Assembly: GCA_964036665.1 (NCBI GenBank)
Contig: OZ038529.1
Location: 25,616,060 to 25,680,059 of the forward strand
Length of the DNA: 64,000 nt
Direction: 5' to 3'
DNA from: Gordius sp. MW1
Lineage: Eukaryota; Nematomorpha; Gordioida; Gordea; Gordiidae
Part shown: positions 12,766-61,149 of the stretch, piece by piece
How the letters are laid out: every line of letters begins with the position of its first letter
How positions within the stretch are numbered: position 1 is the stretch's first letter
Position numbers and translations under genes: made by a program
The notes under the pieces: generated by a model
What the model was told of the DNA's origin: nothing
Seen by the model: only the letters and a program-made list of their open reading frames with translations
Databases searched by the model: none

Positions 12766-12909
12766 ATCACAAATATATTATTTAAAATAAATTTATAAGC
12801 CGAGTGTATATGCGTCAACAATTTGACGTGCATGGTCTTGTCGGTAATCATACAGACACACAGTAACCGCAAATTTTTGATTTTAAAAACACAAAATTTT
12901 TTAGAAAAG

Positions 12910-22900: not shown

Positions 22901-25900
22901 GCAGCAAATCCACAATCGACCCAATCTTCGCCCTAAGACAAATGATGATAAGTATGGTGAAAAGAGGAAAGACCTTTTTATCGACTTAGAGAAAGCTTAT
23001 GACACGGTCCCCCGCGATTTAATATGGTGGTGCCTGACAGAACAAAATATCCCTGACGCATATATACGGCTTATGAAAAATATATATGGAGCCTCAAACT
23101 CTTGCGTTAGGACGACAGTTGGAGACACTAAACCTTTTCGGGTTAATTTTGGATTACATCAAGGCTCTGCTTTAAGTCCCTTTTTATTTAATATAATTCT
23201 AGACACAATAACGAGGGACATTCAAAAGCCATCGCCTGGTGTATGCTATATGCCGATGATATAGTACTATGCGAGGAAAAAAGGGAGAAAGTATTCGAAG
23301 AGCCGAAAAGTGGTCAAAGGGCTTAGCTGGATATGGCTTAAAGGATAACGATCGAAAAACGGTATACATGAAAATGAATGGTACAGGCACCCCATCCCTG
23401 GATGACCATCTAAAGTACCCAAAAGTAGACAGGTTTATATACCTCGGCTCGATGCTACATCAAGATGGAGGTTGTGCAACGGAAGTCAATGCCCGGATCC
23501 AAAAAGGATGGCTTAAATGGCGAAGTATTTTTGGTGTAATGTGCGACAAGAAAATGCCAATATGGTTGAAGAGCAAAGCTTACAAATCCATCGTATGACC
23601 GGTGCTAGTGTATGGAAGTTAAACATAGCATACCACTGAAGATAAGTTAATACAAGCCACAGAGATGAGAATGATACGGTGGAGCTTGGGGTATACTAAG
23701 CTCTACCATATGACGAATGACTCTCATGATAAAATTGGGTATTCAACCTATGGCGGACATGATTAACAAAAATCGGCTAAGGTTGTGTGGGCATATTCTA
23801 ATAAGGAAGACGAATAATGTAAGTCTCGAAAAGTACTGGACATGGAATCCTGCGGAAGAAAGGAAGAGGACGACCTCGTGTCACGTGGAAAGGGCAAGTC
23901 GACAAAGTTGTGAAATTAAAAGAAATTAGTCAATACATGGCGGCACTTACCAGGTCAATATGGAAGAAACTTCTCAAAATAAACCCACGACTTTGAGACT
24001 AGATTTGATAAACAAGAAGAGCTTAAAAAAAATTATCTTAGAATATATCTGCAAAATTTGGCTTATTTTTATCGAACACTTCTTTTGAATATAGATAATA
24101 TAGATGCCCGTGGGCTTCCAGTACTCCAACTTCCATAATATGAAATATTTCAATCTATTTTTAAATACAAAAACCCATTATCATAAGCTTATTTACTTAA
24201 ATTATCTTGCGCACTTTGATTTTTCTATAAGTCTAATTTTGATCACTGCTTTGATAACTCTTCACCCAGAGATGATATAAGATAACATTACATTCAGTAT
24301 CTCCAAAAATATTAAAAAATAGTTTAAGGAGTTTTTACTTTAAAATAGATATATAAAAGAATAAAAATTTAGTAGACTAAAAAATCATAAAAACATAAAG
24401 TCTGTTTATAAAGTAACTTTATAAAAACTAAAATAATTGAATCTGACCCTTAGGAAATATCATTTTTTACACAAAATTTACTGATTTTATAGCTTTATAA
24501 AATTTCTTTTTAAACAACTTTTAGATTTTTTTCATATCCTTAAAACCTAGCCTTCTATGAAATATTTATTTCTAAAAATTAAAAAAGTTGAAAAACTGTA
24601 AAAAAAAATGGATCAACAAAAATAGAATCTTTTATTAAAAATAAAGTGTCAAAACTCTTTATTTTTGTTTTAAGGTATTTTTCTGCCAATTCGCCAAAAT
24701 TTATATGATCTTATTAATTAAACCATATAAAAATAAAGAAGTTATTTTGTTATGAGCCAAATTTTGACCAAATACCAATATAATATTTTAATTTTAAAAA
24801 TAAAAGCTGGAATATAAAGCTTGCAAATAAAAATTGATATTATAATACAACGAAGTTATAGCTATTTAAAGTTTGAGGTCTTCATGACCTGACCCCCTTT
24901 ACCATCCGTGTCCGCATTTTTGACCTGCAGGGTGCCGAGATTAAATCTATTTTGTAAACATTTGTCCATTACCAGTTATTTATATAGCCAATTTTGTTTA
25001 TTTAGTTTAAAATCATTCTTAAAATTTAAAACACCGTGATTATGTTACTACATGTTGCATATGCAGGATTTTATTTCGTGGGTTTTACATTTTTCTTTCG
25101 AATATTTGGTAAATTTTACATGTGATAAAAACAATAGCATAATTACACCTTTAAAAAAAGGTGTCGTGAATTTGTACACAGTCTAAATTACATAGTTTTA
25201 CGTTATATTAACTCTGGTGTAACGGAAATGTAATGGATCGAAATAAAAACTAATTTGAAGATACTTACACAACACATTCTATTGTGAACTCTAAATCTCA
25301 ATTTATGATTTTCATGCTTTGTCCTAAAAATCATCAAAACAATATTATGTCCCCAACAATTTACAACTTTTAAAACTAACAAGAATTTCTTCAACAGATT
25401 AGTTTTCAGCTGTTTTACCTTTGCAACTCTTTAGTATTTGATGCTACATACATACATAGGTATAGGTTGACATTTATAAATAATTTGTAAAATTGTTATT
25501 ATAACACCTGATTATGCAAATGTACAGCTTTGCAAATTGCATTTCAACGGGGCAAGGAGAGGCGGCTGACCCCCCTTTAAATTCAAAAAATTTGTTGAAA
25601 TTTATTAAAATTATGGCTAAAATTTTAATAAATGATTAATTTGCCCCTCCCTAAATCATTACTGCCTCCCTCTAATCCCAATGCTGGCTACTCCCATGGC
25701 TCGGCCCTAGCCTATTGCTTTTATTTTTGTTTTGCCTAAGCCCGATAAAGAATATATTTACACCCTTGCAATTATTAATCATACTTTGAATTTAAAATCT
25801 AATTATATAAAAGTAAATTGAATTATTAAATGATGAAGAACCAGAAAAATTTCGATCAAAGATTAGCTCAAAATTGTAAAATATGTTGTAAAGATTACAC

Positions 25901-28900
25901 CATCTATTATATTTTATGTTTTATTAGAATTCTTTATTTTGTTGTTTGAAATAATTACGCTTTTTGTATTAATTAGTTATATATATATTTACGCGGCGGC
26001 TATTCATTTCTTTAATTTCGTTCAAAAAACAGTACCCGTCCCCTTGCATACGCCAATGCTACATTGCCTAAACGGCATAATGTGTTTATCATAAAAAGGG
26101 CGAACCATGTTAAAATCGTATCTTTATAACATCCTATAGAATATAAATATAATTGCTCAATCAATGTTGATAATCAACTGATTAAAGTTAGATGAGTTAT
26201 AAGGAATTTTATATTTTGCCAATAGGTCATTACAGTCCCAAACCGTTATTATCAGCAGGTTTCCTCAATTTTTTCTACGGATACATCTGTAATTACAATA
26301 ACACTTGCCATAACAAGCCAATGGATAACCAAAACTTTTTCGTTGACGGCAAATCTGAGTATGTCCCACTCATTTTGTGTATAATGGCTATATTCGGCTC
26401 TTGAAACACTTGTTGCCCTAATTACTCAAAGTCACAACGTCTGCCATCTTAATAATTAATTTTGTTTTGGCTGATTAAATAATTATATCATTATTATTAG
26501 ATTTGCCATGGCTTTTATAGATATGGATAGATATCTTGGGAATCAAAGCGTGAAAAAAATTGCCAAACATATTACTAACTTACTCAAAGGTATTATAAAT
26601 TCTATTTTTTAAACCTATATAATATGCATTTCCCATATAGCACCGAACATCAAGGAGGTAAAAATAAGTTATAAATTTGTAACTCCTACTAGGTCTATTG
26701 GACAAGCTTGGATAACTTAGCGAATGTTGTCTCCAATATTTCAACGGTTAGCTCTTTTGTAACTTGAGCGAATGTTATTCTTATACAATTCTTATTGATA
26801 TCTACGTTGATTAATTAAGTGCCTTAAAAATAAAATAGGTGTATTAAATGTAGCAAAATGCTCTTTTTAAATTCACACTATTTCTTAATCTAAAATATTT
26901 CCCAATATTTTTATACAGGGTAAGACACTTAATAATAATTACGCTCATTCGATAATTTATTTATAAAAATTTAAATTCTAAAGATCATTTCTTTTTCATG
27001 AATTTTGTACAAAAATATATAGAAAGTATATGTCAAGAGATTTGTCCGACATTTGAAACCTTTATTTACGATGTTGATTGAATGGAGTAATAATAATCGG
27101 ACCTATACACCTAAAGAATATTCTATTCCACTAATGTCTGGACTCAGATCCTTATGTGGCATGGATTATTCAGCCATACAAGACGAATATTTGAAGGAAA
27201 TTAGTTTAACAGAATTTTTCCAAGATATTCTCTATAAATCCTTGTCAAATTTTGACAAAACTCCATACACATCAAGTAGAATAATTGTACATTATCAGTA
27301 CTTATTACCATAATATTAGGGTTAAAAAATATAAATTATAAAGATTTAAATTTTTTGTTAATTTATATACCTCCATTTTAGCTTTCGATTATTGACCAAT
27401 TCCATCTAAATAATTTAAGCTATAGCACATTTGGCTGATAATCTAATGTGATACCATAGCTTTTTTGCAATTATAATCCACTATTTTTAATATGATTGTT
27501 TTAAATACAACCAATATATCGAGACAAGAGGATGTTTTTTATATAAAAATTTTAGGAAGGGGGAAGGAAGAGGGGTTATGTGCTGTGTTAAGGGAGAGTT
27601 TGTAGCTGAGGTGATGTCTGAAATTAGAAGTCTAAACAAAGGTAGAGTTTGGAAACAAAGCGTGTGAACAGAGGTCAGAAATGCCCGGCCCGGCCCGCTG
27701 CCCGGCCCGCCCGGCCCGGCCCACGGGCCGGGCCGGGCAACTGTCTTAAGTTTTACTTTTCGGACGGGCCCGGGCGGGCACGCTGATAAGATTCGGGCAA
27801 TTCGGGCATGCCAAAAATTTTATCAAATTGATTTTCCTCGAAAAAAGAAAAATTCGCTTATAAACAATTTTGGGCCATAATAAATTTGACTAGATTTTTT
27901 TCTGTCGCTTAAATCCTTATCGTACGTTTATATAATGTCCTAAATCCTAATTTTAACTTCTTCAGAATTAAATTTTATGTTATTTCGAATAAATTAGTTT
28001 ACTGGTTTATCTCAAGATCAAAAATTTTTAATTTTCATATTATATTATAAAAGATGTTCTGATCAATATGTCTTTATTTAATGCTTATTTTGTAATAGTG
28101 GTTAAAAGATTTTGGGATTGGATAATTTCTAGTCACGGGCAAATTTTATTAATAAGGCCGGGCAGCTCTAATGGTTTGGGCATGGCTGAGCTGACACTTA
28201 GAAGGGTTCAGGCGGGGAATTTAGTTAAAAATTTAGACCGGGCCGGGTTTGGGCAGAAAAATTTTAACAAATCCGACCTCTGTTTGCGACCTCACAAATT
28301 CGGGACTAACGGGCAAATTTAATATTTCGGGCCGGGCAATTCGGGCAGCTTTAACGATTCGGGCGGGCCCGGGCGGACACTTAGATGGGTTCGGGCGGGC
28401 TCGGGCGGGCAGATTAATTATAAAATCGGGCCGGGCCGGGTTCGGGCTGAAAAATTCTAACAAATCTGACCTCTGGTGTGAAGCGTATAATTAAGGTATA
28501 AATAACAACTTCAAAACTACTTAAAGGTGGGAGTTGGTGAGGTAGGGACGGTTTAGGGGAGCTAGTTGCGCATAAAAGTAGAGCGTCAAGAGGGGGGGGG
28601 GTTCGTGTTACCTAGAAATGAGACGGGAATTAAATTCAATCATTAAAGAATAGGCGATCTTGATTTACAAAGATGTCGGGCCAAAAATACGGCCTCCGGC
28701 AGGGCCCACACAAATTAAATGTAAACAGCGGTTTTCCGGATTGTAGTTTGCCATTTTAAACCAACAAGCTGCACACTACACTACACAACAATTTAAGTCT
28801 AAAGTGAGCCGAGCCCATAAGTTGCAGACAATTAATATATTTCTAATAATAAATGGACTATTATTATTTTTCTTATAAAATTTTACTATTAAATTATTAC

Positions 28901-31900
28901 AGTTAATTTTTAACTAATAGACCCCTAGAATCATTAGCGATTTTGCAACTTTAAACCTATTTAACTCTGTTGTATTTGGAAAAACTAGATAAAAGTATTT
29001 TTTCGCATATATATTGTTTATTTGAACGTAAGAACATTATGAAAACGAAATGTTAAAATTGGAAAAATATAAGAGCGGGTATAAAACAAAATAAAAAAAT
29101 TATAATTCAAAAGCGTCGCATGTGTCATCTAAGAAAAGTGGCCAGCTGTCGGCCAGGGATTTAAAATTGTACTTTGCTATAAAAATGCCAATTTTTTGTG
29201 TTAAAAAATTTGTGGAATATTTAGAGGGCGGACAGCGACGGCTGATTTCTCTGAAAAGCTTACTGGCGGCAGGACCAAAAGTCCCAGCAATTTTTAAAGT
29301 TTTTGGAGTAAATAAGTTATTTTTATGTGGATCTCTGTCATTATTATTGCAATGAACTTTTTGGAACAATTTTTAGTGATATGAAAAAATGAAGATCGGC
29401 TACGTTTAAAATAATTATAATTATTGGCAAATATACCAGGAATTTATTGATGTCTATTTCTTAAAATCAATATTACCTGCGTTCATTTACGTTCATCATT
29501 CCAAATTTAATCGTAAAAATATGGAGCTGGAGTTTTATGTTTGATATGTTTATTTACACTATTGATCTTTTTACTACTTTCCATTTGTTATATATTTATT
29601 TAAATTTTAAACGAGGCAAATAATATAATGATAAAAATAGATTATTGTCAGAACGTATTTTATGAACTGGAGCAATCGAGACTATTGACAAAAACTTGGA
29701 AGACTCTAAAACCACTATTTGTTAACAAACTCTTATTTACGCCTGTTAACTCTGGTAAGGTAGATTAATATATGTTTAAAATGTATGAAGTTACTTGGAA
29801 AATTATGGAGAATGTGAATAAGACATTTGAAAGGTTTTCTTTCTATCACCATCTGTTGAAAGATGTAATCCATAATATTTTGATAAATATTGAAATCATG
29901 GAAAGCAAAGAGGGAAACACGGCAACTCCTAAGCAAAAGAGATATATACCTATTATAACCATTTTGGATAAATTAATTACAAGGATATCCCAGACGCTAG
30001 ATTGTTTTTCGGTTGATAGAATAGAAGGTTTAACTAGCGAATTAGAGATGGAAAAATACAGTCAAGCTTTAATGGACTCGGACAACTTTTTTGCTGGAAT
30101 TGTATTTATAGATATGGTTAATGATAAGCATATGCTCAAACCAATCGATGCATTGATTGAAGATTCGTCAAAATTTGTACGTTACAAAATACGGATGGAT
30201 GCCGGAAAAATTGATTCTACAAACACATTGTACGATGAGCATTACATACATTCACCTTTAAGACATCCACTAAAACACCACAAATACTACTATAACGGTT
30301 TTGTCATTCTTCAAGACCTTATCGATACTGCCATTATTGATGTTTTTACTAATAATACTCTTGAAAATGAATCTTATATACACAAGCCAGGCTTATACCT
30401 TCAGCAGACGCCATATCCCTGCTATAATCGAGACGAGTAAAATTTAAAGCGATTAATATTTTGATAATTTATGAAAATTTGCTGCAAATAATTATTCTAG
30501 GTTTCTAAGGTCGATAAAAACGCCTATGAGTCATCATTTAAACTTATGTTGGTTACCATATGTAGCACTAATAATAATATCTATGGTAGAAGAGAAAGAG
30601 AACAAACGTAAAATGTATTACAAAATGTTTGGAGTGAGTCACACCCTTTGGACAATCTCTTGGATTTTTAATTACTTATTTCCAACCATAATAACTTCTA
30701 TACTAATAACATCACTCCTATACTATGGGGGCATATTTACATACGCCGATAATTTGATCATATTCATCATAGTTTTTTTGCAAGGATTCGCCAGCATCTC
30801 ATTTGGCACCTTAATTGCAAGCTTGTTCAGTAAAGCTAGATCAGCTGTTGTCACCGGTTTTTTTACCTATCTTTTCACAAGCATGCTCCTGAACTACTTA
30901 TCCTTACAAGAAATATATTTATATGTAAGACATTTAATTTTAGCTATAACTTAATAACTACCATAAAAGAGGAATACCCCAAGGGTTTAGTCCGTCTGAT
31001 TACACTGGTCTACAAAAAAAATCAACCGGGAAACGGTCAACATATTCTGATAGAGTTTTTTGTGGTGAACACAAATATGTTTTTCGTTTGTTTCCTATAC
31101 GTTTTTTAGATATTTCGATTCAAAGTTGCGAAAAGGACCTTTTTTGATGCTCAATAGAGCGATATTGAATGGCTAAAAAAAATCTTAAACCTCTAAGTGG
31201 TAGAACCAACTTAGGGTAAAACATTGAAAAATGATTTTTTCCCCTATTGTTTTTACTTTTTCTAATATATCAAAAATGCAATTAGTCCCTATGCGAAATC
31301 GCGGCATCCTTTGAGCCTCCCTCCCTCTCTATCTAATTGGCTTATATGCTTATATAACACTATACCCTTAGTGCATGTAAGTGATTGATGGGTGTGGTGG
31401 GTGCAAGAGTAGTGGGTTAATACGAACTATTCCTACTACTACGCCTGTCATCCTCCCTCTCTACTAGAGGAATAGCTCGTATTACGCCACTACTTTTACA
31501 CAACCCCACATCATCCATCAATCACTCACATGCACAAAGAGTATAGTGTTATAAACCCAATTAGATAGAGAGGGAGGGATGGAGGCTCAAAGGATGCCGC
31601 TTCGCATAGGGACTAATTGAAATTCGATATATTGGAAAAAGTAAAAACAATAGGGAAAAAAATCTTTTTTCAATGTTTTACCCTACGTTGGTTCTACCAC
31701 TTAGAGTTTTAAGATTTTTTTAGCTATTCAATATCGCTCTATTGAGCGTCGAAAAGGGTCGAAAAAGGTCATTTTCGCAACTTTGAATCGAAATATCTAA
31801 AAAACTTGACGTATAGGAAAACAACGAAAAATACATTTGTGTTCACCACAAAAAACTCTATCAGAATATGTTGACCGTTTGATTACACAATACCTTTATT

Positions 31901-34900
31901 TGTAGACCAGTGTTATTTACTTCTCTTTCCTAATGACATTCTCTCGAGTCAATTTTTTTAAATAAAGACGTTTCTAATGCAATGCCATAGAAAATATAAT
32001 TATTTAGCATTTTAATTTATATGTTATTATTTTTTTAATTACTCTAAAGATTTGATTTGAACTATATTAAGGTTCCTCTACCTGTCGCCTGCTATACGCA
32101 ATTAATGGAATTAATTATAAGCAAAGAAATTGAACAAGATGGTTTGCAGTGGAATAATTGGACGGCAGAAAACATTTTAAATGTCTTTGTTTTGTTCTTA
32201 TATGCAGAAGTCTACATAGCATTAGGATTGTGCGTTGAGGCACTAACTAAAAAATTGAATTTCGAAAGATTCCAAAAAATATATGCTATTACATTACAGC
32301 GCATTAAGCGTATAATGGGAATAAAGAAAATAACGAATCCTGACACGGAAATGCCTGATAAACATGATTCAAATATTTTTGAACCAGAGATTGGCAATGA
32401 ATTTAAAAAATTACTTTCTTTCCAAAACGTGTATAAGGTTATTTAAAAAATTTATCATTTTAAACAAAATAGTAATTATTATCAACCATGACTCAGGCTT
32501 TTTCTTAACTATTCTAATAAACACTATAGCCTTTAAGTTATAAATTCAATTAATTATTATTCACTGCTAACTTTACTTTTTATAGAAGACAAAAAATAAC
32601 ACTATGTTGTTGGAGAATATGACCTGCTCATTTTATCAAAATGAAATCACCTATTTATGTGCTGATTCACCGGCTACGATTGACACATTAGATGCTATTA
32701 TTAAAGGAGAAGTAACACCTGATTCTGGTCAAATTTTATTTGAATGCGATGACACAGCACCCACGAAAAGGTTACTTTATTATTAATTAATCATTATTAT
32801 TGCAACACATGGAATAGGACTAATATTGGATATGCGTCGGAGACTGTTTGCTATTTTAGGGAATTAACTGTCGAGGAAAATTTATGGTTTTTTATGAAAC
32901 TCGCTAAAACCAAGAGTAACGTGCGCCACCAAGTAAAAGCAATAATTTAGATATTTTATTAATAATTACATGTTAAAATACCTATTTTATTAAAAATATT
33001 AGCATATGTTTTAATTAAGCTTTTAGATGATAAGAGGTTAATTTAGGTTTTAAATTATTTATATAATATAAAAGTCTAATGTAAGCGCAGCTATACAAAT
33101 TCGAACAACGGGGTGTATTTTTAGACTACATTCATACCAAAAACATAGAACTTAGCTAACACTATTTTATCCTTCTTTTCTCTTAAATTCTTTGTTACAT
33201 TAAACCGGCTTTCATCTACTACGTTCATTTAAATACTCCCCCAGCCCCACCCTTCCCACAAAGATATCCTTAATTCATGGGCGTACGCAGGGGGGGGGGG
33301 CAGGCCCCCCCTAATTTAAAAAAAAAAAATTTTAATACAAAAACCCTTAAAAATTAATAAAAAAATTATGTTTTGCCCACCCCTAATTTTGCTCTGCCCC
33401 ACCCTCATTAGGCTCTGCCCCACCCTAATGGCTCCCTGCCTCCCCCCCCCCTCCGGATAGCCGAGACCTTTTTTTTTTTTTAGCTCTCAGTAAAATTTTT
33501 GGTAAGGAAAAATTTTGGATTTGGATAGTCGAGACCTTTTTTTTTATTTTTTTGCTCGCCGAAATATTTTTCGTAAGGAAATTTTTTTTTAATTCTGCCC
33601 ACCCCTAATTCAAAACCTGCGTACGCCCATGCCTTAATTATTAAGTAAACACAACTATTATTTAAGGTTTAAATGAAGCTAATACTATATTTAAAACAAT
33701 GGTAAATATGCAATAATTTTCCCAAAAAATAGGCATAAAATGTAAGTTTAGCTAGTTATATTCAATTGTTTTAATAACGAATGTGTCGCTTTATGCATTT
33801 TTTTACTCCATTTTCCATAAAACTTAATTTGTACGAGCCATACGATCAGTTATTAATTGCTATGCAATTTATGGGCTCGTTTTTTGGTGTCCGTCCGTCG
33901 TCCGTCCGTCCGTCCGTTGTCCGTCCGTCCTCCCTATCTATTTGCATTGGGTATATTAGGTTATCGATTTTTTAAATTAATGCATGAGAAAGAGGTGCCC
34001 CACCCCTCATCTCTATCTCCCTCGCTGTGTTATTTTTGAAATTAATGCATAAGAGGTGCCCCACCCCTCATCTCTATCTCCCTCGCTTTCGGGCGGGGTC
34101 GGGTTTTAATTGCTACGTTAAATTAATGCATAAGTATATCTATATGCAATTATTTAACTAGTTTTTGGGTTAGAATCCCGGAGTTTTTTTTGACTCTTAT
34201 GATTGTTCTTGTTACTATCATTGATAATAAGACTTTTTGGCCGTGCGCTGGCTGCTGACCAATAAAAAAAATGACCATTGGCCAAAATGTGAATCCGAGT
34301 TTATTTTTTCATCTTTTTTTGACTATTATGATTGTTCCTGTTACTACCATTGCTATTATGACTTTTTGGCCGTCCGCTGGCTCCTGACCGATGGAAAAAA
34401 TGACCATTGGCCAAAATGTGAATCGAAATTATTTTTTTCGGTTTTTTTGACTATTATGATTGTTCCTGTTCCTACCATTGCTATTATGACTTTTTGGCCG
34501 TCCGCTGGCTGCTGACCAATGGAATAAAATGACCATTGGCCAAAATGTGATTCGAAAATTTTTTTTCTCGTTTTTTTTGACTATTATGAATTCATATCCA
34601 CTTTTACCGTGTCCTGGCTACTGACCAATGGAAAAAAATGACCATTGGCCAAAATGTGATTCGAAAATTTTTTTTTCGTTTTTTTTACTCTTATGAATTT
34701 ATATCCACTTTTACCGTGTGCTGGCTGCTGACCAATGGAAAAAAATGACGATGGGCCAAAGTGAACTTCAAAATTTTTTTTCCGTTTTTTTGGCCATCAT
34801 TGACTTATAGAGTATCTGTTGGTACTGACCAATGGAGAAAAAATGACCATTGGCCAAATTTTTGATTTTTTTAATTAAAAATTGTTCAAATTCAACAAAA

Positions 34901-37900
34901 AATTTCTCCCAACAATTCTGCAAATTCTTAACATTGTGATGTTTTATAATATAATGTTTGTTAGACCCATAATCACTAAAGGCCATAAAAACTAATGTAA
35001 TACGCAACTAGATGCAAACACTAAATCTAACCCTAACCCTTGCCTATATTACATTTTGCCTATATTACATTTTGCCTATAAAGGGAAAATTTGTATAAAT
35101 AATTAATTAATCATTAGGCATTTAATACCCCCCTATAGGCATTCTCGCCCCTTCCCACCTTTCTCGCCCATAAATTGCATAGCAAATATGATCCATTTAT
35201 ACGAAATATAGATGAGTCGTCCCCCCTTCCCTTCCCCCCTTCCCTTCTCCCCTCCCCCTTCCCACGAGGGCCGAAGGCCCGAGTTCTATTGTTTAATCGA
35301 TCGTTCTTTTATTTATTTATATACCCTTATAACATGTTAAGGTTAAATGGGGATTTATAAAATTCATGTATATTACATTTTTGTTTTTCTCATAATAATT
35401 TGCAACCTGCTGAATTACTAAAATATATTAAACTGCTTTTAATTGAAAGTGACATTTTGATTATAGGATGTGCAAAAATTGTTAAAAGTTTGTCAACTCT
35501 ACGAATATCGACATTGCAAAATGTACGAATTGGCTCGTAACAAGAGAATTTTGTTAAATTTGGCAATAGCATTTGCTGGAGAATGTCGGGTTGTACTATT
35601 AAAAGAAGCCTTACAAAATTTAGAATTTGGGTTTTATAACGATTTATGCTCTTTGCTTATAGACCAAAAACAAAGTATGATAATGACCTATTTTTTAACC
35701 CTATATAATAATTAGACAAAAGCATCATTATACTCACCTCACAACTTGTACCCGTTGCCACAATATGTGATAGAATAGCCTATGTCATGCAGGGAAAACT
35801 TCTTTGTTTTGGGTCAGAGACACAATTGAAATTGGCATTTACAAAAGGTTTGAAATTATACATCACTCCAAACGACATCGTGGAATCTGAAAAGCTCAAT
35901 GCCGTGGTAAATTAAAACTGTTTATTGTGTTTATTATGTAAAATCACACCAAGAGAAATTGATCGAAATTTAATTTTTATTATAAAATAGAGCGAGACCC
36001 AAACTTTACCCGTTTTGCCTAAAGGTATTGTTACTTAGTTGTTTTTATATATTATAAGAAATGATTTTAATTTAATTAGCATTTTTAAATTGCATTTATG
36101 TTATATTCCCGAATTTAAATACGATTACAAGCCATGATTTGGTAGACTTTTTTTTATATATTGTCGCTTAATTTGTAAAATAATTTCTCTTATTATATTT
36201 TAAAATAATTTTACCTTTTCAAATTCAACTGGTAAGAGGAGAAGATTTTATTCTTGAAATATAAATATTTTACCATAAACATATAAGTATACATTACATT
36301 AAGAGCGCTTGTAAAAAGTCGTAAAAAATTATAACTTACAGCGTTTTTCTTTACTTTCGCTCTTATTCACTCTCCTCCCCCACACTAGTGGCAAATAAAA
36401 GATTAATCTTAGCTTTTGAAAAGAACGCACTTTCCCTCTTCTTATTTACCATGCACTTTACTCCTTCCCTTAATATGTGTGTGTTTTCGCCACTTGCATT
36501 TGATCCTGCACAATTTATATGAGATGATTTTGGTATATTTTGTTGCCCTATATGTCAAGTTTTTGAAATCATTGCTGTCAAAGTTGCTGAAAACATCGAT
36601 TTGGCGTTTACCTCATTAACTGCAAATTAATCAGTAAAATTTTCGTTTAATAAATTGTATTCATCCATATTAATTTAATAAGGATCAAAAATTAAATTGG
36701 AACATTTTAAACTCAAATCTTTGTTAATAATTTATAAAACACAGATAAAAATCTATTTGATTCTGAAACTGGCTTTTAGCTGGCCTTACGTATATCTAGG
36801 CCTGGCCAGAGCCCGTTAGGTTATATTACGGTCAGTTCAGGGCCTGCCCGTTTTTTTAATCAGAAGCCCGCCCAAGTCCGGCCCGCGCCTGTCCTCTGGT
36901 CGGGCTAGGCCGTGCATGTCTCTAGTAATATTTGATAAAACAACACGCTATTCCTATTGTTAAAGGGAAGAGAGAATGTTTTAAGTCTGGGCCAATTCGA
37001 CAAATTTGAATATATCAAATTGTAATAAAGCTATGGCTAATTTTTTTAATGGATTCTTATCTTATTTATATATCAACTGTTACCGATCAATTTATAAATT
37101 AATGATGTTTCAAAAACGTCAAAATTTCTGCTCTTAGCAACTTTGACAGCAAATATTTTAAAAACTTCACATATAGGAAAATAGATAAACAATATATTTG
37201 TGTTCACCGTAAAAAACTATAGCAAAATATGCAAACAGTTTGCCGGTCAATTTTCGGATTTGTTGATATTATTTAAAGTTTAAAAATATAAAATTTTATA
37301 CAAAATTAATTTAAAAATTAGGATAACTATTTTCAAAGGTTATGTAAAAAAGTAATCTAGTGAATATTTTATTCGTTTTTTTAACAATATCGTATACAAA
37401 ATTAGTAAAAAATTAGAAAGAACCGGTTTCAAAGGTTATTTACTAAATAATCTAGTTATAATTTTAATTTAAAACTTTAATAAAAAAATTAAATAAAGCT
37501 TCATCCTATAATTTAGAAATTTTAGCTAGCTTTTTTTATATCATCCAAAAATATAGCAGATAAATCGACACATTTCGGACAAAAACTACCAAATTTTAAA
37601 ATAGTCTGAGGCAAATGCAAGGGTAACGAAAATAGTAAGGGAAGGAGTAAGTTGCATGCGAAGTAGAGAAAGGGAAAGAGAGTTCTCAATCAAAAGCTAT
37701 GATTCACTCTTTTTCTCTCCCAATAGTGTGCGGGACAGAGTGTAGAAGTACCATAGAAGTAAAGAAAAAGGCGGCGCTTGTACAAAGAATTGCCAGCCCA
37801 GCCTCCTTTTTTGATCTTGAGACAAACCAGGAGTTATGTATTGGTTTGGTACCACTTCTGCAAGGATATTTAAACCTTTGCTCTGCTTGTTATGCGACTA

Positions 37901-40900
37901 AGAAAAACAGACACCAAAAAATCTTTAGTTTGTTCATGTGTAGTCGACTGACTAAAACCAAAGGAGGTCGACCAAGCAACGAAACACACCCAGCCCCGTT
38001 TTTACAACATTACTGCATAAACCCAGCCCAGATGTTAGATGCGCGTTTATTAGATCTAAGAAGCTATTGAAAGGATTAAACACACTAATACCATCACTAG
38101 CAAAAATGCCTGTAGTGTGTCGTCCTGTGTCGTCCTATTTTTATGATGATCCCCTCCCCCCTATCGTCTTCTTAAATCCTTATAGATAAAATTACTATAG
38201 GGCGATTGTTGTTAATTAGCATCGCCACATGTGCCGGATTTTCTGGCTACCCTTCGCTTCTTAGATTATTAATACGTAGCTGCAAAGCACACAACGTGTT
38301 GTTGACAGTAACAAAATATTCGATTATTATCTATTGGTGTTGTAAAAAGACCTGGGTTTTTAGCCGACCTTTGGAGTAGACCTTTAGGCTTAGCCGAAAT
38401 TTGAAAAGCAGACCAAAAGTTAGGGTTAGGGTATTTAGTTTAGAAACCTTTAGGCCTAGTCATAATTTTGTTAATAAACCAAAGGTTTTTCATCAGAATT
38501 CATCAGTCGACCTTTGGCATGGTTTAGGTGTTTTGGAGTGTATTTTGAGGATGTTTTTGTGACTTTGAAAATATGCAATATAGATTAGAGATTTACAACG
38601 GGCCCTTTTTAGAAGGTCGGCCCGCCCGTACCCGTTTTCAAAACCTCAAGGCCCGTCCGAGCCCGCCAGTATTTTTTTTAACATTTCAGGCTCGTCCGAG
38701 CCGGTCCATGAGTATTTCAAGCCCGTTCCTACCCGTTTAGAAAAACGTCAAACCCGCGCAAGCCCGTTCAAATTTTTTAAAAAGAACTCCGCACTCGGCC
38801 CAATTTATCAAAAATTTCGCATTATTTTATTTTCTGATATTCATACAAAACATCAATAATTATCATGTAAGAAAAACAAATCGTCAATTATTTCCGTAGT
38901 TAATACACCTAAAAATATCAATATAGTCCTACCATTAAACAACTATAAAAATTAAGAATATTCTACTTTAAACAATTTACTGTTATTTGATTAATTTAAA
39001 TTAATACACCTGAGAAGTTAAAATTCAGTATTATCATTAAATTAATATACTCTAATAAAATTACATGAAAATATTCAACTTTCAATAAGCAGTTTACGTT
39101 GATTTGATTAATTTATATTAGTCAATACACCTAAATTTTAGATTAGAACAAAAATATTTATTAAATTATATAGCACTAATAATAAATACCAGTATTATTT
39201 GTGATAGAATTAAAGAACAAAAATTTTGGTGCATTGTAACTAAGAATTGAACTTACTTATAAAAGAATATATACGAAGCTATAATCTAATTATGTAAACG
39301 AAAATTTATAGCAAATAGAATAAAAATGTTTTAAAGTGAAATTTAGCGCTTGAATAGGAATAAATGCTTCAGGATATACAAAAATTAGTGGTTAAAAAAA
39401 TTAACCATAATAAAAATTATATATTTATTTAATTTTCGCCTTTAAGGACCTTTGTAATTCCATGACCGTTTATATAAAACTTCAGGCCCGTTCAAGCCCG
39501 TTAAAAAAATCTCAAGCCCGCCCGAGCCCGTTCCATCAATTGTTAAGCCCGTCCGGGCCCGGCCCGTTAAATTTTTTATGATACAAAGCCCGTCCGTACC
39601 TGCCCGCGGTACGGGCTTTTAGGCCCGTCCGCGGGCCGGGCCTGCCCGTGCAGATCTCTAATATAGATACAGGGATCTTTTTAATTGCACTGATTTGATT
39701 CTAATAACTTTGAGGGTGATTTATAATATTGATACCTAGTGGTAAAATATAATTAAGAAAAATAATTTGTCAACTTAATTTGGTGACAATTGTCATAATT
39801 GTCTTTTATGAAAGCATAATTAATTTTTTACAAAAATTGGTGGGATAGGGTGTCATAAAATTGTGCAAATATAGTATTTAAATCTGTTAACATATCTTGG
39901 TGATAAATGTTATAATTGTCGTTTGGAAATCAAAATAAATTTTTCAAACGAAAATAGATGGTTCAAAGTTTCACAAAATAAAATTATATTTGTCAACCTA
40001 ACTTGGTGACAGTTGTCAAAATCGGCGTTTACAGAGCTAATTAAATTCTTTTAACAAAAATTAATGGGTAAGGGTCTCACGAAGTTAATATGAATATAAA
40101 ACCAACGGGTCGGATCTCGGACGGCCCATGCAGGGCTGTACCTACAGATTACACTGGTACCCGTCGAAATTAAATATTTTAACTATTTAGTTTTACTTTT
40201 GTGCATTTAAGTTTAAAAATTGAAGAATTATAAACATTAGTGTAAAATAATTTTTTTTTATATTTTACTGAATAACTTGCATTAATGGCACCAATGTCGA
40301 TGTGCTGCCGTTGTGATAACTTTTTTTATTATCTCATCCCTACGATAATTTTATGTAATTTGTTATGTCTTTAATATCACTTAGATGATTATACTCTTGA
40401 GACAATAAAGCAAATGGTGTCTGAATTTATAGGAGGGATCGAATTTATTGGACAAAGAAACAAAGTTTATGAATTTACTTTACCCTATGACTCTAAAGAT
40501 TGCAACTGTATATCGTCTAGCAAAGCAATACAAAAATTTGTGACCTATGTAGAAGAAAATCAAGATACTTTGGGGATACATAATATTGAGCTTTATGATT
40601 CTTGTATTACAGATGTAAGTAGTATAGTTTAAACGTTAAATTATAATTACTTCGTCACAGGTTTTTGAAGTTTTAAAAGGCAGAACTATGGTACAAACTT
40701 CTCCAAGTAGTAGTGTGCAAAATAAGGAAACATATCTCGATCAAAGTTTATTTATATATATTTTATAACGTTAAAATTTATTGAAAAGATATTGTCAAAA
40801 GTCTGTCGAAAGAAGTTAAAAGCTTATGGATTCTTCAAAGCATTGACAGAGTTAAACACAAGTGTTTATATATAATGCGCAACAACAAGTGTTTATACCA

Positions 40901-41735
40901 AATTATCCTTTTCATTTCAGTATTGACCTTTTCAACACACTTGCATAAACTGCATAACAATGATGAGCAAGAGAATATATATCCAATACCTTTAACTACT
41001 TTGATGCATTCAACTCATCGGGGTGTTTTTGAAAAGTGAATACTACAACATTCGAACCTTACATTTAATTTTTAATCATTATTGGCCACCACTTTACATA
41101 GGCCTAACGATTTTAAATTGAGGAAAAAGGAGGGGGGGGGGGGAGGGGGGAAGGAGGGCAAAAAGTTTGGTACTCATTTAGGCCCTATTTGTTTTAAACT
41201 ATTATCATAATGTTAAATGTATGAGATTAATTATGAGATAGAAGCGCTAAGCTCATCAAATAATTTGTTTTATATGATTTAAGGCAAAACCATCGACTAA
41301 TAGACGGCTTAATGCCTTCTGAATATTAATCCATCTTTTGTCATCTATCAAGATGGTTAGTAAAAAGCTTATTTTGCTTCTTATATCTGTTTCATATAAA
41401 ATTACAAATAATTTATATTTTATAAAATTGAGCTTTTTAAACAAAAATATAGGGATAATAATAGAATAATTTATAAATTAGATCAACCTATAAAGCACCA
41501 TCTACACTTATATTTTAAATAATTTCTGCCTAATTTATTTCGTTCAAAGAATTCTTAAGATAAATATTAATTGTTATATTTCATTATAATTGCCAAATAC
41601 AATCCCTCGCTATATAAAGTTTAGGTGAATTTTCAATACGGCGGTCACTTTTAGCAAAACTTTATATCTTGAATATATAAATCCGAGAAATCTATTAGTC
41701 TATAATTAATATATTATCTTATTCTGCGACATCAA

Positions 41736-41781
<46 letters not shown>

Positions 41782-44700
41782 ATTTTCAATTAACGATAAA
41801 AATTAATATGTATATATATATAGGTTTTGATACTATGTTTTAAATGATTATTCAGAGCTAGAGATTCCTATGATAACACGACCTCTACGGGCGTTTTAGG
41901 CACAAGCAAAGAGTTTTTTGGAAAAAATACTATGTCAATACTTTATGATTATCCAGATACTTTATATATCAAGAAATTAAATGAGTGTATATATCGCATT
42001 CCTCATAAATACGATAACAAATGTCACATAACTCTTTCTATCAAGTCAAGGTCTCACGGGTCCAAAATAAAATGTACCGACCTATTCGATCAAATTTGTT
42101 TTAATAAAGCAAAGAAACCTAATCAGAAATATGGTAGAAAAATTTTAAAGATTTTACCTAGTAAAAACAACAAGTGTATTTGCCTTGATAAAGATGGTCA
42201 AAATCAATGTTTTAAAACACCTAGCTCTCAAGCATCTTTCGAATCTTGGTCCAATTTAATTACTAGAGTCGATACTAAAAAATTAAGTAAATTTTTTGTC
42301 AGGAATACAAACTATAGATTTGATGTGATTGGAGGCTACGATAAAATATATCCACAAAATCTCACTTTATCTCTACAGGACAAATATAAAAGTGCATTCG
42401 TTATACAAGATATTTTAAACAAAACTCTGTACAATCCAAGAAAACAAGATATATTAAAGTTGTTATTAACGAATACAGAGCATATACATTATTTGCAATA
42501 TCTTGCATATGCTGATATCGACTATGTTAAAATTTGGTATGATAACAGACTCAAAATTGGAATGGCATCCTTCCTAACTTTATTCGACACATCCTACTAC
42601 AGGAATCTCATTAAATTCAAAGCCAAATCGACAAGCACCTTTAGTAAAACTTCACCTTCAACGGAGAATTACAAATATACGGCAAATAAAAAGGTTTCTC
42701 ATTACACAGACGAGATAAATATACATAATGGGGTTGATTACGGCATTCTTACAATAAATCATCCTATTTTTAACGAAAAGTCACATATAAGGTAATCTTT
42801 TTTAGAAGTAAACAAAATAATTCCAACTTTATATTATAATGTGTAAATTAATATTTTTATATTCTGTATATATTTAAATTCTAAATCTAGTAATTTTTAT
42901 TATAATAGGAGACTAATGATTACCTATGAAACTCAAATAGCAATCATTCTTTTAACTTTAAACATTTTAAATGGGCTAATTAAGAGTAGCTCTTCCTACG
43001 AAGTATTAGAAAGACTTGAACCCTATCACGCCATTGGCTATACGATTGCTCATTTAATAAGCAATTCTATTATACAATTAGCATTGTTAGCATCAGCCTT
43101 TATACTACAGACCATAATTGGGCAAGCTTATGATCCATTTGTCATACTATTTTTTGTTTCATTCAGGTATAAAATATATTGAATAAACTTTCAATATCAA
43201 ACCTCTTTTATTTACATAGCTTAGCGTATATTCCTTATATGGGTTTACTCTGTCGTTTATTTAACTTCATTTGCCCCTCATTTATATGTAATGTTCTAAT
43301 CACCATGTTATGCGTCCTCGCAGACATAACATTAAATATACTGCCAATATATTTTTATAAATGGAGTGCAGTGACAATATTGTTTCCTCCTTTTAGTTTT
43401 TTCAAGGGTTTGCTATTAGTGCACAAACATCATTTTCCGAAAGTTGAGAGGTAATTTATATATTACATCTTAGAAAATGTGTTATAGTGTTTCATATAGA
43501 CACGCGGTTTATGATGAATCTCAAGAAGTTGTCAGACAATCCTACAAATTTTTATTCTTTGCAATTGTCTATAGTGTCCTTGAAATCGCAATACGGGTTA
43601 AGAAGCCGTGGCAATTAAATAAATTGTATTGGGGAAAAATCAAAACTAGGTTTGCAGCTTTAAAAAATCGGATGAAAAAGCATTTACCTATGAAAAATGA
43701 AAGATCTGAAATAAAGTCTGAAGATCCACTTCAAGATTCAGATAATTTAAGGAAAGATAATAATTCAATGGAATTCAAAATTTGGATGAAGGATGTAACT
43801 ACTTCCTTATTAAAAAATATTAACATTCAAATACAAAATAAAAAATGTTTTGGAATTCTCGACCTTAATAAAGCCAATTCAAGTATATAATTTTTACAAC
43901 AACATTATATAATTTTTTAGATTGCAGAATCTTCTACGAATTATTAAGTGGAAAGGTGAAAATTTTGAAAGGAGATGTATATGTGCATGGTTATAATGTT
44001 CGAAAATCAATGTGTGGTAGTTTCAAACTTATTGGTTATTATCCAACCAATCAACTTAATAAGTATTTAACTCCCAGAGAAACGCTTGTCTCGTATGCGC
44101 ATATGTTGGGGTTAGGTGATGCTCATCAGGTAAATTCATAGCTCCACAACCTGGAGCCTAATTAGCGATGCGCATTTTATATTTTATAACGGCAATTTAT
44201 GAAGGTTTACTTATTTTCGTTATTTACTTTTATAATAAGTGCAAGCCCCGAACAAACAATTTTAATCGAGTTAATATTCATCAGGTCAATTTTTAGTGAA
44301 GGAAATTTAGGAGCCAAGTCAAAATTCGACCTAAGTTTAAATTTAGTTCCCCATTATAAATACTTGTTTAGTTGCATTATACATGCAAATTCTACCATTC
44401 TAATTGGTGAATATTTTCGCTTTCCTATTCTAATTATCACCTTTATTTAATTAATAGTTCAAAAATTATCCCAAAAATTAATAACTTAATACATTTTACA
44501 CCAGGACAGCTGGATTTCTGCTACAAAACTTTGAGTAATCCTAAATGTTTTGTTAATTACAAGAGGTTTTAACTTTTACTTTAATTTTTGAATATGCAAG
44601 CAAGTTAAACAAATGTCATATCTTCCAGAAACTTCGTTTAAATTTTCATAAATTTATGAGCGTAGTTAAGTTGCCAACTTAAAGCAATTCTAAATGTTAA

Positions 44701-47700
44701 ATAACGAAATAATGTAAGCAACGCATGTCAAAATAAAGGAAATTTAATTTAAAAACTCATACCCAAGATTAATTTTACCAAGACTATGTTAGTATTGATA
44801 ACTGACAATGTCAATCATAGGTAACTATGTCTCTCTATACTTAAAAGGTGAAAGTCGAGATAAACAAGACCTTAACATTGTTGTATTAAAATGATTGAAA
44901 GTCAGAATTAATTTTAATCCTTACAAGGTTAACTAAATCGTTTTGTGAAGTTTAAATATAGTAAATTAACAAAAATATCCTGATGGGTTTATGCATGTTA
45001 ATCATTTTTTAGCTGGTAGAAAAATACTTGAAGGATTTCGAGTTTGTGGAAGATACATGGATACATCATTGTACTCATGAAACTCGTAGAAAAGTGTGCA
45101 TTGCTCTAACACTCATGAGTAATTATAGGATAGTTTTATTGGAAGAGCCTTTCGAAGGTTTGCCAATATTATTTTTTGTGTATATATCCATGGGCGTAGC
45201 CAGGTTTTGGATTAGGGGGGGGGCAAAAGTTGTTTAAGGGGGGGGGTAAAGCACAAATTTTTTTAAATTTAAGGAATTTTGTATTAAAAAATTTATTTTT
45301 TGTCATTTAAGGATATCTTTTGGTAATATTGTTATTACATTGTTTAGTATTAAATTTTTAAAAGTTGTTAGAATATTTAAAATTTTCAAGGTGTCTAATA
45401 TACATAAAAATATAAAAATCTATGTCGTTTAATAATTTTACAAATAATCGGTCATTATGAGCTATTTTTAAAATTCGCTCGGTAATTTTAACGTATTGTA
45501 CTTATTTACTATATTTGCACAATTATTAAATTATTTTAATACTATTATCAGGCTTTAACGGAAATATACGAAATGTCTTACGAGATTATATTCTTCAGAA
45601 GATCAACCAAGATCGCATTGTGTTAATTTTTACTAGTAGTTTGGAAAACTTTGATATCTGTTGTGAAAGTGCGGTGTTATTTAATGGACAAATTAAATAT
45701 AATGGATCACATAAGGAATTACTATCAAGGTAAGCATAGTTAGCGCGTGTCCGAATTAATATCTCTCCGTGTGTATTCGCTGAGTTACCCATAATTATAC
45801 TATAACAGGTATGGAAGCACCAGCTATCGCATTAAAAATAGCAACTTTGATATAGAGTAGGGCTTTGATTTAGACGACATTATAGAATAAAACGTTTTCT
45901 TGAAATCGAAAAACCATATATTACCCTGCGATTTTTTTTCTATTTGATTAAATTATATTTAAAAAAAATTGTCTATTTTTTAATTTACCCCAATAACTTT
46001 AATGTAACTAGCTCCATCAGGTAGGTAATTGGTACTATATTTAATTATTTTGAAACAAATGTAATTATAATTAGTTACATTTTTTTTAATTTACTGTAAT
46101 TTAAATTGAAATATGTAGTGGAAAAGTAACTTTAACATCTATAAGAATCGCGCTTATAAAATAATTGTCGAATAGCTGTTATATGGTAAATCATTCTCAA
46201 AATTTCCCCCAAAAGTGTGATTGTCTCCTCATCATCGTTAATCACCGCTGTAATTCTGTTATTGTAGGAACATTATAAGATTTTTACCGTTGTGATTGTG
46301 AATCAATATCGGGAGGTGGTGATAAAATCTTAAATTGTTACTACATATAAATGGTTGTTATTTATCATTTAACTAGCTCAACATTTAGTCTTTGTTCCTT
46401 TGAGATTTTGAATAAGTTGATCATAGTATCCTCATCATATATGTATTATAAATGTTATATGAACTTAAATTTCTGTAGTTTGAATTTTATGGTATGGATC
46501 AGTCATAAAATATAAAACTGGCATAATAAAAGGTTTCCAAAGTTGCCGTTTTTTTCAGTCGAAAAGGTTATAAAGTTTCCAAACATTTTTATGCCTTTCA
46601 ACAACACCTAAATTTATTAAAGATGTACATTTATTAAACAAAATAAAAAATTTTACAATAAACCTCGTTATACCTATCATTACAATTTATCATAAATATA
46701 CTTTGTAATTTCCATCTTTTTATTACATTTTATACACACTACTTAATCAAACTTTAACCTAAATATACAAATACATTTCAATTAAAATACAAAGTATGTA
46801 ATTATAATGATACATTTTTTAAATTGTTTGTAGTTATGAATTTGGGTATAGGCTGTTTATAAAATTGAATGCCAAGTCACAGAACAAGTTTCTGAACAAG
46901 ATCCATGACTTATTGGCTCAAAGAATTACAGGATTTTATCCCTTAAGCAAATTCTTGATGGTCAACTCTTCATACATTCTAGTAAGTGAATATTGCATTT
47001 AGATTATAAAGATATTAATTATGGAATTAACGTTTATTTTGATATAGCAAATTTATTTTCAAATATTACTTTATATCTTTACGTTTTATTTTATGTTTCT
47101 ACCTAAATTGGGTATTTGTATCTTCTGATTTCCTTCGAGTTGAAACAGGCGCGTAGCCAAGGGGGCGGAAAGCGGGACTTTTCCTTCCCATTGACCAAAA
47201 TTTGAAATTTTTTTTGATTATTAATTAGATTAAGTGGGTTAAAATATTATAGTTTAGTTGCATAAAAGATTTTAAGACACTTAAAAGCCTGGAAACATAA
47301 TATATACATTTAATTTTTCGAATTTAATTTTCGATTAAATGCATTGTAAAATTTCCGAATATGATTGTGAAAATTGTTATGAAAAAAAAACTTGGTTGAA
47401 CATTTTTTCACATAAAAACATTATACCGGCCCATTGCTAGGAAGTGACTAATTAAGCGATTATGTTTAATATAGTAATTAATTTCTTATATATTTCAATT
47501 TTTATAAATATTATGGTTTGTGTTTTAATTGTTACTTGTGCATATATAGATAAAACTATGCATCTCTTAACCTAATTAAGCATTGAATATCAAATTAAAT
47601 AATATTTGTGGTAATCTATCCTATCCTATATATTTACATAATTTTATTCCATTGATTAATAATTTCTAGATGATACCCTGTATTTGTTCAAAGATGTAGA

Positions 47701-60425: not shown

Positions 60426-60479
60426 TTGTGTTAAAAAAAAATAAGACATTTATTTATATTAAATTTAAAAAAATCATAA

Positions 60480-60600
60480 AATTTTGAACGAACGTGAACG
60501 CGCTCCTTTTTTTTAAAACGAACGTGAACGAGTTTGATTTTTGTCAATGAACGTTGAAAGCATTTGATTTTTTTAAAAATGTTTACAGCACTACTTAAAA
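60480..60600. repeat. GAACGTGAACG repeats
   Basis: Short repeats of GAACGAACGTGAACG with T/A spacers directly after the LINE 3' end. They resemble the subterminal arrays of the hAT elements here, but no matching second end was found. Confidence 0.5.
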
Positions 60601-61149
60601 TTAACGAATTTATAAAAAGTGAAACTTGATTTATCAGGCATTTATTTTAGCTGTCCAGCATGCTTAATTTATCTTAAAGGGTTTATGGGTGTTACCGGTG
60701 CCGTGTTTGTGCTATTTGTTATTGATATCGTCTCATATTTACCAAATGCTTGCTAAATTTTAAAGGCAGAATTTTAAATATTTCAAATAATATTGTGCAA
60801 TCAATAAAGTTTTTTGAATATATAAATGTATCGTCAGACCAGATTCTATTTATTTATATGCCTGCGTCTCTCATACTTAATTTTGGTCACTTATTTATAG
60901 CCCTGAGCTTATTAATTAATTAACCTAGATACAACCACATGTGCCCATAGTAATGCAATTTAACCTATAAAAAGCCACATGTGTCCATGAAGCATTTTAA
61001 CCTATAAATTTTATAACAATGTTAACGCCACGCTATAGCTTTAGTGTCTTTAGTGACTATGTGCTATAGCTCTAACGCCTTATGTGACTATATGCTATAG
61101 CTCACGTAATATGTCAAAAACATAACAATTTGTGTTTTCAACCAATGAG
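60601..61149. other. Spacer with two small tandem repeats
   Basis: ACCACATGTGCCCAT and AACCTATAAA motifs repeat with a spacing of about 38-40 bp (60935-61010), and GCTATAGCT..TAGTGACTATGTG repeats twice (61030-61100). No gene. Confidence 0.5.

What the first reader, a model, noticed from the sequence alone, without database searches (positions are those of the whole stretch)
32586..45729. Full-length ABCA-like protein with both ATPase domains catalytically dead
Across 30 joined exons the gene keeps the complete ABCA1/4 architecture and many identical landmarks. Yet in NBD1 Walker A, Q-loop, signature, Walker B and switch His are all replaced, and in NBD2 Walker A, Q-loop, signature and switch His are replaced while Walker B is LLEEP. 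There are no stops or frameshifts inside exons, and every intron has GT-AG ends in phase. A neutral pseudogene would show random breaks; here loss is concentrated on ATP chemistry. I know of no full-length metazoan ABCA described with both NBDs dead (from memory; not searched). It could be a pseudo-transporter: a lipid-binding receptor, scaffold or dominant partner that no longer uses ATP.
Basis: partly seen in the sequence, partly recalled or inferred. Interest (0 to 1): 0.92.

Follow-up and report, generated by a model that had tools for sequence, protein, structure and literature searches.

The report
ATPase-dead ABCA-like gene family near telomeres
This animal genome carries several copies, near chromosome ends, of a large ABCA-type membrane protein whose two ATP-burning domains have lost their chemistry motifs yet are still kept intact by natural selection, which suggests a transporter turned into something else, perhaps a receptor or a brake on real transporters.

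Summary
The core observation holds, and the thing is larger than reported. The gene spans at least window 26226-54204 (26 exons found, in phase, GT-AG, 1,993 stop-free codons), not 32586-45729. NBD1 and NBD2 have lost Walker A, Q-loop, signature and switch-His residues; the Walker B glutamate stays in both. No contiguous frame in the gene restores them. It is one of at least eight related loci on six contigs, all within about 320 kb of a contig end. Six are long and stop-free, including an older paralogue (C5; dS about 0.9) dead at nearly the same places. Codon models give omega 0.24 (NBD1) and 0.15 (NBD2, lowest of seven parts), which refutes neutral decay. The closest canonical homologue found in this genome keeps its NBD1 motifs. 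The N-terminal part of ECD2 has pN/pS near 1 and moderate support for diversifying sites. I read it as an ABCA-derived pseudo-transporter family whose NBDs are structural, possibly presenting a fast-evolving ECD2; receptor and dominant-partner roles stay open. No transcript, assay or structure model was available; TM1 and the start codon were not found; the species is unknown.

The parts
26226..26358 (+). e01, ECD1 start (HYSPKPLLSAG..ICNYNNTC)
   Evidence: aligns ABCA1 HFPNKAMPSAG (weak, 3.8 bits); present in C1, C2, C3s, C5, C6, C8
26501..26589 (+). e02, ECD1
26641..26657 (+). e03, 17-nt micro-exon, tentative
   Evidence: phase and splice sites only; no match listed in paralogues
26693..26746 (+). 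e04, ECD1
27023..27275 (+). e05, ECD1
29641..29754 (+). e06, ECD1 (YCQNVFYELEQS..KPLFVNKLLFTP)
29791..30436 (+). e07, ECD1 C-terminal part (GLYLQQTPYPCY)
30501..30924 (+). e08, TMD1
   Evidence: (Pfam ABC2_membrane_3 5.5e-12)
32072..32437 (+). e09, end of TMD1 and linker to NBD1
32586..32770 (+). e10, NBD1 with lost Walker A (LCADSPATIDT)
32818..32932 (+). e11, NBD1 with lost Q-loop (GYASETV)
35467..35674 (+). e12, NBD1 with lost signature (ELARN) and Walker B VVLLKEA
35716..35906 (+). e13, NBD1 with lost switch His; donor moved one codon to 35906 after comparison with paralogues
35991..36024 (+). e14, linker micro-exon (SETQTLPVLPK)
   Evidence: identical protein in C1, C3s, C6, C8
40385..40614 (+). 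e15, regulatory domain 1
40661..40706 (+). e16, RD1 end
40789..41035 (+). e17, TM7 region
41856..42791 (+). e18, ECD2 in one 936-nt exon; N-terminal part fast evolving
42909..43166 (+). e19, TMD2
43220..43450 (+). e20, TMD2
43500..43882 (+). e21, end of TMD2, linker, NBD2 start with lost Walker A (DLNKANS)
43921..44129 (+). e22, NBD2 with lost Q-loop (GYYPTNQ)
45013..45157 (+). e23, NBD2 with lost signature (CTHET) and Walker B IVLLEEP
45552..45729 (+). e24, NBD2 with lost switch His (FTSSLEN)
46834..46981 (+). e25, regulatory domain 2
54061..54327 (+). e26, RD2 end; homology to about 54186, open frame to the stop that ends at 54327

Best explanation
It is a functional, multi-copy, ABCA-derived pseudo-transporter. 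Inferred history: an ABCA1-like gene was duplicated in this lineage, lost ATP binding and hydrolysis in both NBDs, was kept as a protein with the ABCA layout (ECD1-TMD1-NBD1-RD1-TM7-ECD2-TMD2-NBD2-RD2; TM1 not found), and was copied between contig ends. Shown: open frames, lost motifs, paralogues dead at nearly the same places, purifying selection on both NBDs and RD2, and positions near contig ends. Inferred: the NBDs serve as a structural platform that holds the two halves together, and the protein cannot pump lipid by ATP hydrolysis. Inferred, weaker: it works from the cell surface through its two ectodomains, with the fast-evolving N-terminal part of ECD2 as the contact surface, binding a lipid or protein ligand or competing with an active ABCA for partners. 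An experimental double Lys-to-Met ABCA1 is a precedent for the second option.
For: Stop-free frame of 1,993 codons. 1,914, 1,949, 1,945 and 1,947 stop-free aligned codons in C1, C2, C6a and C8, and 1,771 in C5. Codon model with omega=1 rejected in 7 of 7 parts; omega NBD1 0.242 (2dlnL 68.4) and NBD2 0.151 (134.9), against ECD1 0.214, TMD1 0.304, RD1+TM7 0.429, TMD2 0.393, ECD2 0.451. Without C5, NBD1 0.328 (14.1) and NBD2 0.180 (59.1). RD2 pairwise ratios 0.00-0.20 in 10 of 10 pairs. Window-to-C5 DNA matches in the gene are about 86% exonic (3,476 exon bases in 4,049 aligned, summed). Replaced motifs are largely shared between copies. The canonical control gene keeps NBD1 motifs, 16 of 17 motif residues identical to ABCA1. 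ECD2 N-part: M2a over M1a 2dlnL 14.8-20.3 on three topologies, gap-masked. ABCA1 with both Walker A lysines changed is reported to traffic normally and to act transdominantly on MEGF10 engulfment (PMC1762421, abstract and passages).
Against: No expression, localisation, binding or ATPase data. No structure model. TM1 and the start codon were not found. Without C5 the RD1+TM7 part does not reject omega=1 (2dlnL 3.2), and some close pairs give ratios above 1 on few changes (for example e17 W-C2 3.07, W-C1 1.40; TMD2 C1-C8 2.00; e21 linker C2-C6a 5.63). Selection on ECD2 could be relaxed constraint plus recombination: the best tree differs between ECD2 and its N-part, and whole ECD2 gives only 2dlnL 5.0-10.1. 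Retained Walker B glutamates leave residual nucleotide interaction conceivable.
Confidence: 0.8

Rival explanations
1. Recently dead pseudogenes: the family lost function lately and frames have not yet broken.
For: C3s is broken: an in-frame stop in e09, a lost e11 donor, and no e22-e26 in the fetched stretch. C6b is a 3'-half copy.
Against: C5 and the window share lost motifs at dS 0.87 over 1,318 codons, with NBD omega 0.15-0.24. Six long copies are stop-free.
Confidence: 0.05
2. Dominant partner or decoy: the dead protein joins or competes with an active ABCA (for example the C5:21.33 Mb gene) and tunes its lipid export or engulfment role.
For: ATPase-less ABCA1 (MM) is reported to traffic normally and reverts MEGF10-driven engulfment to background in a titratable way (PMC1762421, passages). 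A homologue with intact NBD1 motifs exists in the genome.
Against: The same mutations in ABCA7 gave no such effect. Eight loci and ECD2 divergence are not needed for this role. No interaction data.
Confidence: 0.25
3. Diversifying recognition receptor: an ABCA shell that displays a variable ECD2 for self/non-self, pathogen or lipid-ligand recognition.
For: ECD2 N-part pN/pS 0.74-1.74 in 13 of 15 pairs (the other two 0.12 and 4.70, both involving the broken copy C3s), against 0.19-0.49 in 14 of 15 pairs for the C-part (C8-C3s undefined, no synonymous change). M2a favoured there but not in NBD1, NBD2 or ECD1, the three other parts tested. Copies near contig ends.
Against: Low synonymous divergence in the N-part and recombination between copies can mimic positive selection. 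No ligand, no signalling motif tested.
Confidence: 0.3
4. Still a transporter or scramblase: one or both NBDs bind ATP in an unusual way, or lipid moves passively through the TMDs.
For: Walker B Glu kept in both NBDs of the window copy; TMD1 and the ECD1/NBD parts still recognisably ABCA.
Against: P-loop, Q, signature and His are lost in both NBDs of the window copy, and likewise in the other long copies except that C5 keeps a His near the NBD1 switch position. The Walker B Glu of NBD2 is Asp in C1, C2, C6a, C6b and C8.
Confidence: 0.12

Closest known systems
ABCA1 / ABCA4 / ABCA7 / ABCA3 (full-length ABCA lipid transporters)
   Same: Sequence homology over ECD1, TMD1, NBD1 and NBD2-RD2 (ABCA1 chain 7tbz 2.6e-86; NBD2-RD2 best to ABCA3 7w01 6.3e-39).
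   Different: Both NBDs lack the ATP motifs; NBD1 is 28% identical to ABCA1 (64 of 232) where the canonical paralogue is 51% (118 of 232).
Canonical ABCA at G000:C5:21.326-21.346 Mb (same genome)
   Same: Outside the family, the only locus among the 52 matches listed for the C5-paralogue query; shares segments such as LQDIIDTAIID and QQTPHPCY.
   Different: Has LGHNGAGKST, CPQ, LSGG, VILDEP and TTHYMDE in NBD1; its NBD2 was not read.
ABC exporters with one degenerate site (ABCC, TAP, ABCG5/G8, some ABCA)
   Same: Non-canonical motifs kept under selection.
   Different: There one site is degenerate; in human full-length proteins it is always NBS1 (PMC7756269, passages). Here both are lost.
ABCA1-MM engineered ATPase-less mutant
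   Same: An ABCA without catalytic Walker A lysines in both NBDs.
   Different: Engineered two-residue change in human cells (PMC1762421, passages), not a natural gene family.

Membership tests
ABCA subfamily (by descent) | Homology over ECDs, TMDs, NBDs and RDs in ABCA order | tested here: met
   ECD2 and TMD2 rest on order and on shared stretches with the canonical paralogue, not on a PDB or Pfam match; TM1 exon not found
ABCA subfamily (working transporter) | Intact Walker A, Q-loop, signature and switch His in at least one site | tested here: not met
ABCA subfamily (working transporter) | ATP hydrolysis and lipid export | not testable with these tools
   No assay
ABC exporters with one degenerate site | One degenerate and one canonical site | tested here: not met
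   Both sites lost
Neutral pseudogene | Stops or frameshifts and omega near 1 | tested here: not met
   of eight loci, C3s is broken and C6b partial
Pseudo-enzyme (pseudo-transporter) | Catalytic motifs lost, fold domain under purifying selection | tested here: met
   catalytic inactivity itself is inferred
Diversifying receptor family | Replacement excess in an exposed domain | tested here: inconclusive
   recombination not excluded

The most novel reading that the evidence does not exclude
An animal lineage turned a lipid pump into a near-telomere family of ATP-independent surface receptors. The two dead NBDs are kept as a rigid intracellular clamp, and the ECD2 ectodomain diversifies from copy to copy as the recognition surface.
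Probability: 0.3. Interest if true: 0.87.

Novelty: new variant of a known kind. Interest (0 to 1): 0.72.

Why it matters
In the human full-length ABC proteins surveyed in PMC7756269 the degenerate site is always NBS1 (passages). A natural ABCA family with both sites dead and both NBDs conserved separates the structural role of NBDs from their ATP role and gives a natural test of what an ABCA ectodomain does without pumping. The position near contig ends and the fast ECD2 add a possible recognition family in an animal. Of nine paper searches, eight were on this question and one on the organism. Among the rows listed (titles and abstract openings, at most 15 per search; several searches matched 30-58 papers) none describes a natural full-length ABCA with both NBDs dead. 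The library holds only open-licence PMC papers, so this is a limited check.

Tried and rejected
Considered and rejected. (1) Neutral pseudogene: rejected by omega and open frames. (2) Alternative exons restoring motifs: six-frame scan for contiguous strings negative inside the gene. (3) 'Loss concentrated on ATP chemistry': not significant against the rest of the NBD. (4) An alternative C-terminal exon at 45809 (YGSTSYRIK..stop): the matching places in C1, C2, C6a, C6b, C8 and C5 do not keep that frame, so taken as chance. (5) The first unmasked ECD2 site test (2dlnL 41.5) was set aside because several of its sites lie beside gaps; the masked test (47 of 314 columns dropped; C5, C3s and C6b left out) is the one used. 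(6) TM1 exon: candidate hydrophobic frames upstream of 26226 are not open in all copies. (7) Naming the organism: bryozoan assemblies were looked up (listing and abstract openings only) but nothing ties them to this genome; the 18S searches failed.

Rows dropped: C3s and C6b were left out of codon models (broken and partial). In one search only sense-strand matches with E<1e-3 were listed. One search scored 24 of 139 candidates, one search scored 48 of 48. The other ABC genes listed (20 matches) were not compared. Codon models used one fixed tree and one starting point each.
Full report
What was checked. The window lies at G000:C3:25616060-25680059 of an unnamed 211.8-Mb, 12-contig genome. The start of contig C3, the one contig end read, carries a CCCTAA (TTAGGG-type) telomere array. 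I built a gene model by hand and checked it by script. Twenty-six exons from 26226 to 54204 join in one frame, all 25 introns have GT-AG ends, and they encode 1,993 residues without a stop. Base composition predicts a stop in 7.8% of codons, so chance openness is about 5e-71. Comparison with paralogues moved the e13 donor by one codon, to 35906, which adds one residue. TM1 and the start codon are not in my model.

What it is by homology. Against PDB chains the protein is closest to ABCA1 (2.6e-86), then ABCA4, ABCA7 and ABCA3. NBD2 through RD2 aligns to ABCA3 at 6.3e-39. Pfam finds ABC_tran at NBD1 (4.2e-13) and ABC2_membrane_3 at TMD1 (5.5e-12), and nothing else at E<0.001. ECD2 alone matches no Pfam family at E<0.01. 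It keeps six cysteines invariant over the six copies aligned, and stretches such as YVKIWYDNR and YGILTINHPI whose counterparts (FVKVWFDNR, YGIMTISHPL) occur in the canonical paralogue.

The motifs. NBD1 reads YLCADSPATIDT for Walker A, GYASETV for the Q-loop, ELARN for the signature, VVLLKEA for Walker B and LTSQLVP around the switch His. NBD2 reads ILDLNKANS, GYYPTNQ, CTHET, IVLLEEP and FTSSLEN. The Walker B glutamate remains in both NBDs of the window copy; in NBD2 it is Asp in C1, C2, C6a, C6b and C8 and Glu in C5. C5 has a His (TSHL) near the NBD1 switch position. A six-frame scan found no contiguous Walker A or signature string within the gene. At 17 motif positions the window keeps 3 of ABCA1's NBD1 residues, against 61 of 215 elsewhere; against the canonical paralogue, 3 of 14 aligned motif positions against 70 of 211; NBD2 keeps 4 of 17 of ABCA3's, against 54 of 203 elsewhere. 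None of these differences is significant, so the motifs have lost special protection rather than been singled out. The canonical paralogue keeps 16 of 17 of ABCA1's.

A family near contig ends. A translated search of the own genome found loci on C6 (two), the start of C3, C2, C1, C8 and C5 besides the window. With the window that is eight loci on six contigs, and all eight lie within about 320 kb of a contig end by the coordinates and contig lengths; I made no formal test of this position. Counts are lower bounds, since one search scored 24 of 139 candidates. C1, C2, C6a and C8 have 1,914-1,949 aligned stop-free codons, and C5 has 1,771. C6b is a 3'-half copy. C3s, about 17-33 kb from the telomere, is broken by a stop in e09 and lacks e22-e26 in the fetched stretch. 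Splice ends counted where the match reached the exon end: C1 44 of 45, C2 43 of 43, C3s 34 of 36, C5 20 of 21 (first part only), C6a 40 of 41, C6b 11 of 11, C8 43 of 44. In C3s, C6a and C8 the e13 miss is cured by the donor one codon on; C1's e17 donor, C3s's e11 donor and C5's e13 donor are not. The nearer copies share intron as well as exon DNA over much of the gene, which marks recent duplication, whereas in-gene DNA matches to C5 are about 86% exonic (3,476 of 4,049 bases, summed).

Selection. Pairwise NG86 between the window and C5 gives dS 0.873, dN 0.290 over 1,318 codons. A codon model (GY94-type, one fixed six-copy tree) gives omega ECD1 0.214, TMD1 0.304, NBD1 0.242, RD1+TM7 0.429, ECD2 0.451, TMD2 0.393, NBD2 0.151; omega=1 is rejected in 7 of 7 (2dlnL 16.3-139.7). 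Without C5, 6 of 7 reject it (2dlnL 11.7-59.1); RD1+TM7 does not (3.2). RD2 was tested only pairwise: 0.00-0.20 in 10 of 10 pairs. Close pairs give unstable ratios, some near or above 1 on few changes: e17 W-C2 3.07 and W-C1 1.40, TMD2 C1-C8 2.00, e21 linker C2-C6a 5.63, NBD1 C6a-C8 0.83. Overall both dead NBDs are under firm purifying selection.

ECD2. Site models favour a positively selected class in ECD2 but not in NBD1, NBD2 or ECD1, the three other parts tested. That first ECD2 test has several sites beside gaps. After realignment and masking (267 of 314 columns kept, five copies modelled) the whole domain gives 2dlnL 5.0-10.1 and its N-terminal part (129 columns) 14.8-20.3 over the three best topologies. 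N-part pN/pS ranges 0.74-1.74 in 13 of 15 pairs, with outliers 0.12 and 4.70 that both involve the broken copy C3s; the C-part ranges 0.19-0.49 in 14 of 15 pairs, the last being undefined for want of synonymous change. The best tree differs between ECD2 and its N-part, which suggests recombination, so diversifying selection is likely but not proven.

Control gene. Besides the family itself, the C5-paralogue query listed only one locus, C5:21.33 Mb. It reads LGHNGAGKST, GLCPQYN, LSGGLKRR, VVILDEP and LTTHYMDEA in NBD1. The same exon-by-exon reading thus recovers intact motifs where they exist. Its NBD2 could not be read. Other ABC genes of this genome were not compared.

How it most likely works. 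Shown: a stop-free, selected, multi-copy reading frame with the ABCA layout whose NBDs lack ATP motifs. Inferred: NBDs and RDs act as a structural clamp and the protein does not pump. Precedent: ABCA1 with both Walker A lysines replaced is reported to traffic normally and exerts a transdominant negative effect on MEGF10-dependent engulfment, while ABCA7 with the same changes does not (PMC1762421, abstract and passages). [quoted passage not shown] I weigh a surface receptor (0.3) and a dominant partner (0.25) as the leading concrete roles, with overall confidence 0.8 in the pseudo-transporter reading.

Limits. No transcripts, no structure model, no related species, unknown organism. Catalytic death is read from sequence. 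The names of motifs and domains are from general knowledge of ABC proteins.

Noticed in passing
window 3398-3991 (-): Homeodomain open frame (Pfam Homeodomain 3e-21).
   Followed up: no
window 22195-23600 and 58149-61605 (+): Fragments of a non-LTR-type reverse transcriptase element (RVT_1 below Pfam's cut-off; frames); related DNA lies near the C6 and C8 copies.
   Followed up: partly
window 12799-14981 (+): hAT-like transposase remnants (Dimer_Tnp_hAT below Pfam's cut-off).
   Followed up: no
window 31002-31912: An insert with long imperfect inverted repeats in the intron between e08 and e09; the matching DNA of C1, C2, C3s, C6a and C8 runs on without it.
   Followed up: partly
G000:C12 and nuclear places on C1, C3, C4, C5, C8: COX1 matches: 1 of 24 on contig C12 (mitochondrial-looking), the rest on large contigs, mostly with TGA inside, i.e. 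likely nuclear mitochondrial insertions.
   Followed up: no
G000:C6:144-182 kb: One long copy and a tandem 3'-half copy (C6b) of the same gene, about 18 kb apart.
   Followed up: partly
window gene introns: Many very short introns (12 of 25 between 35 and 87 nt) beside long, repeat-filled ones.
   Followed up: no
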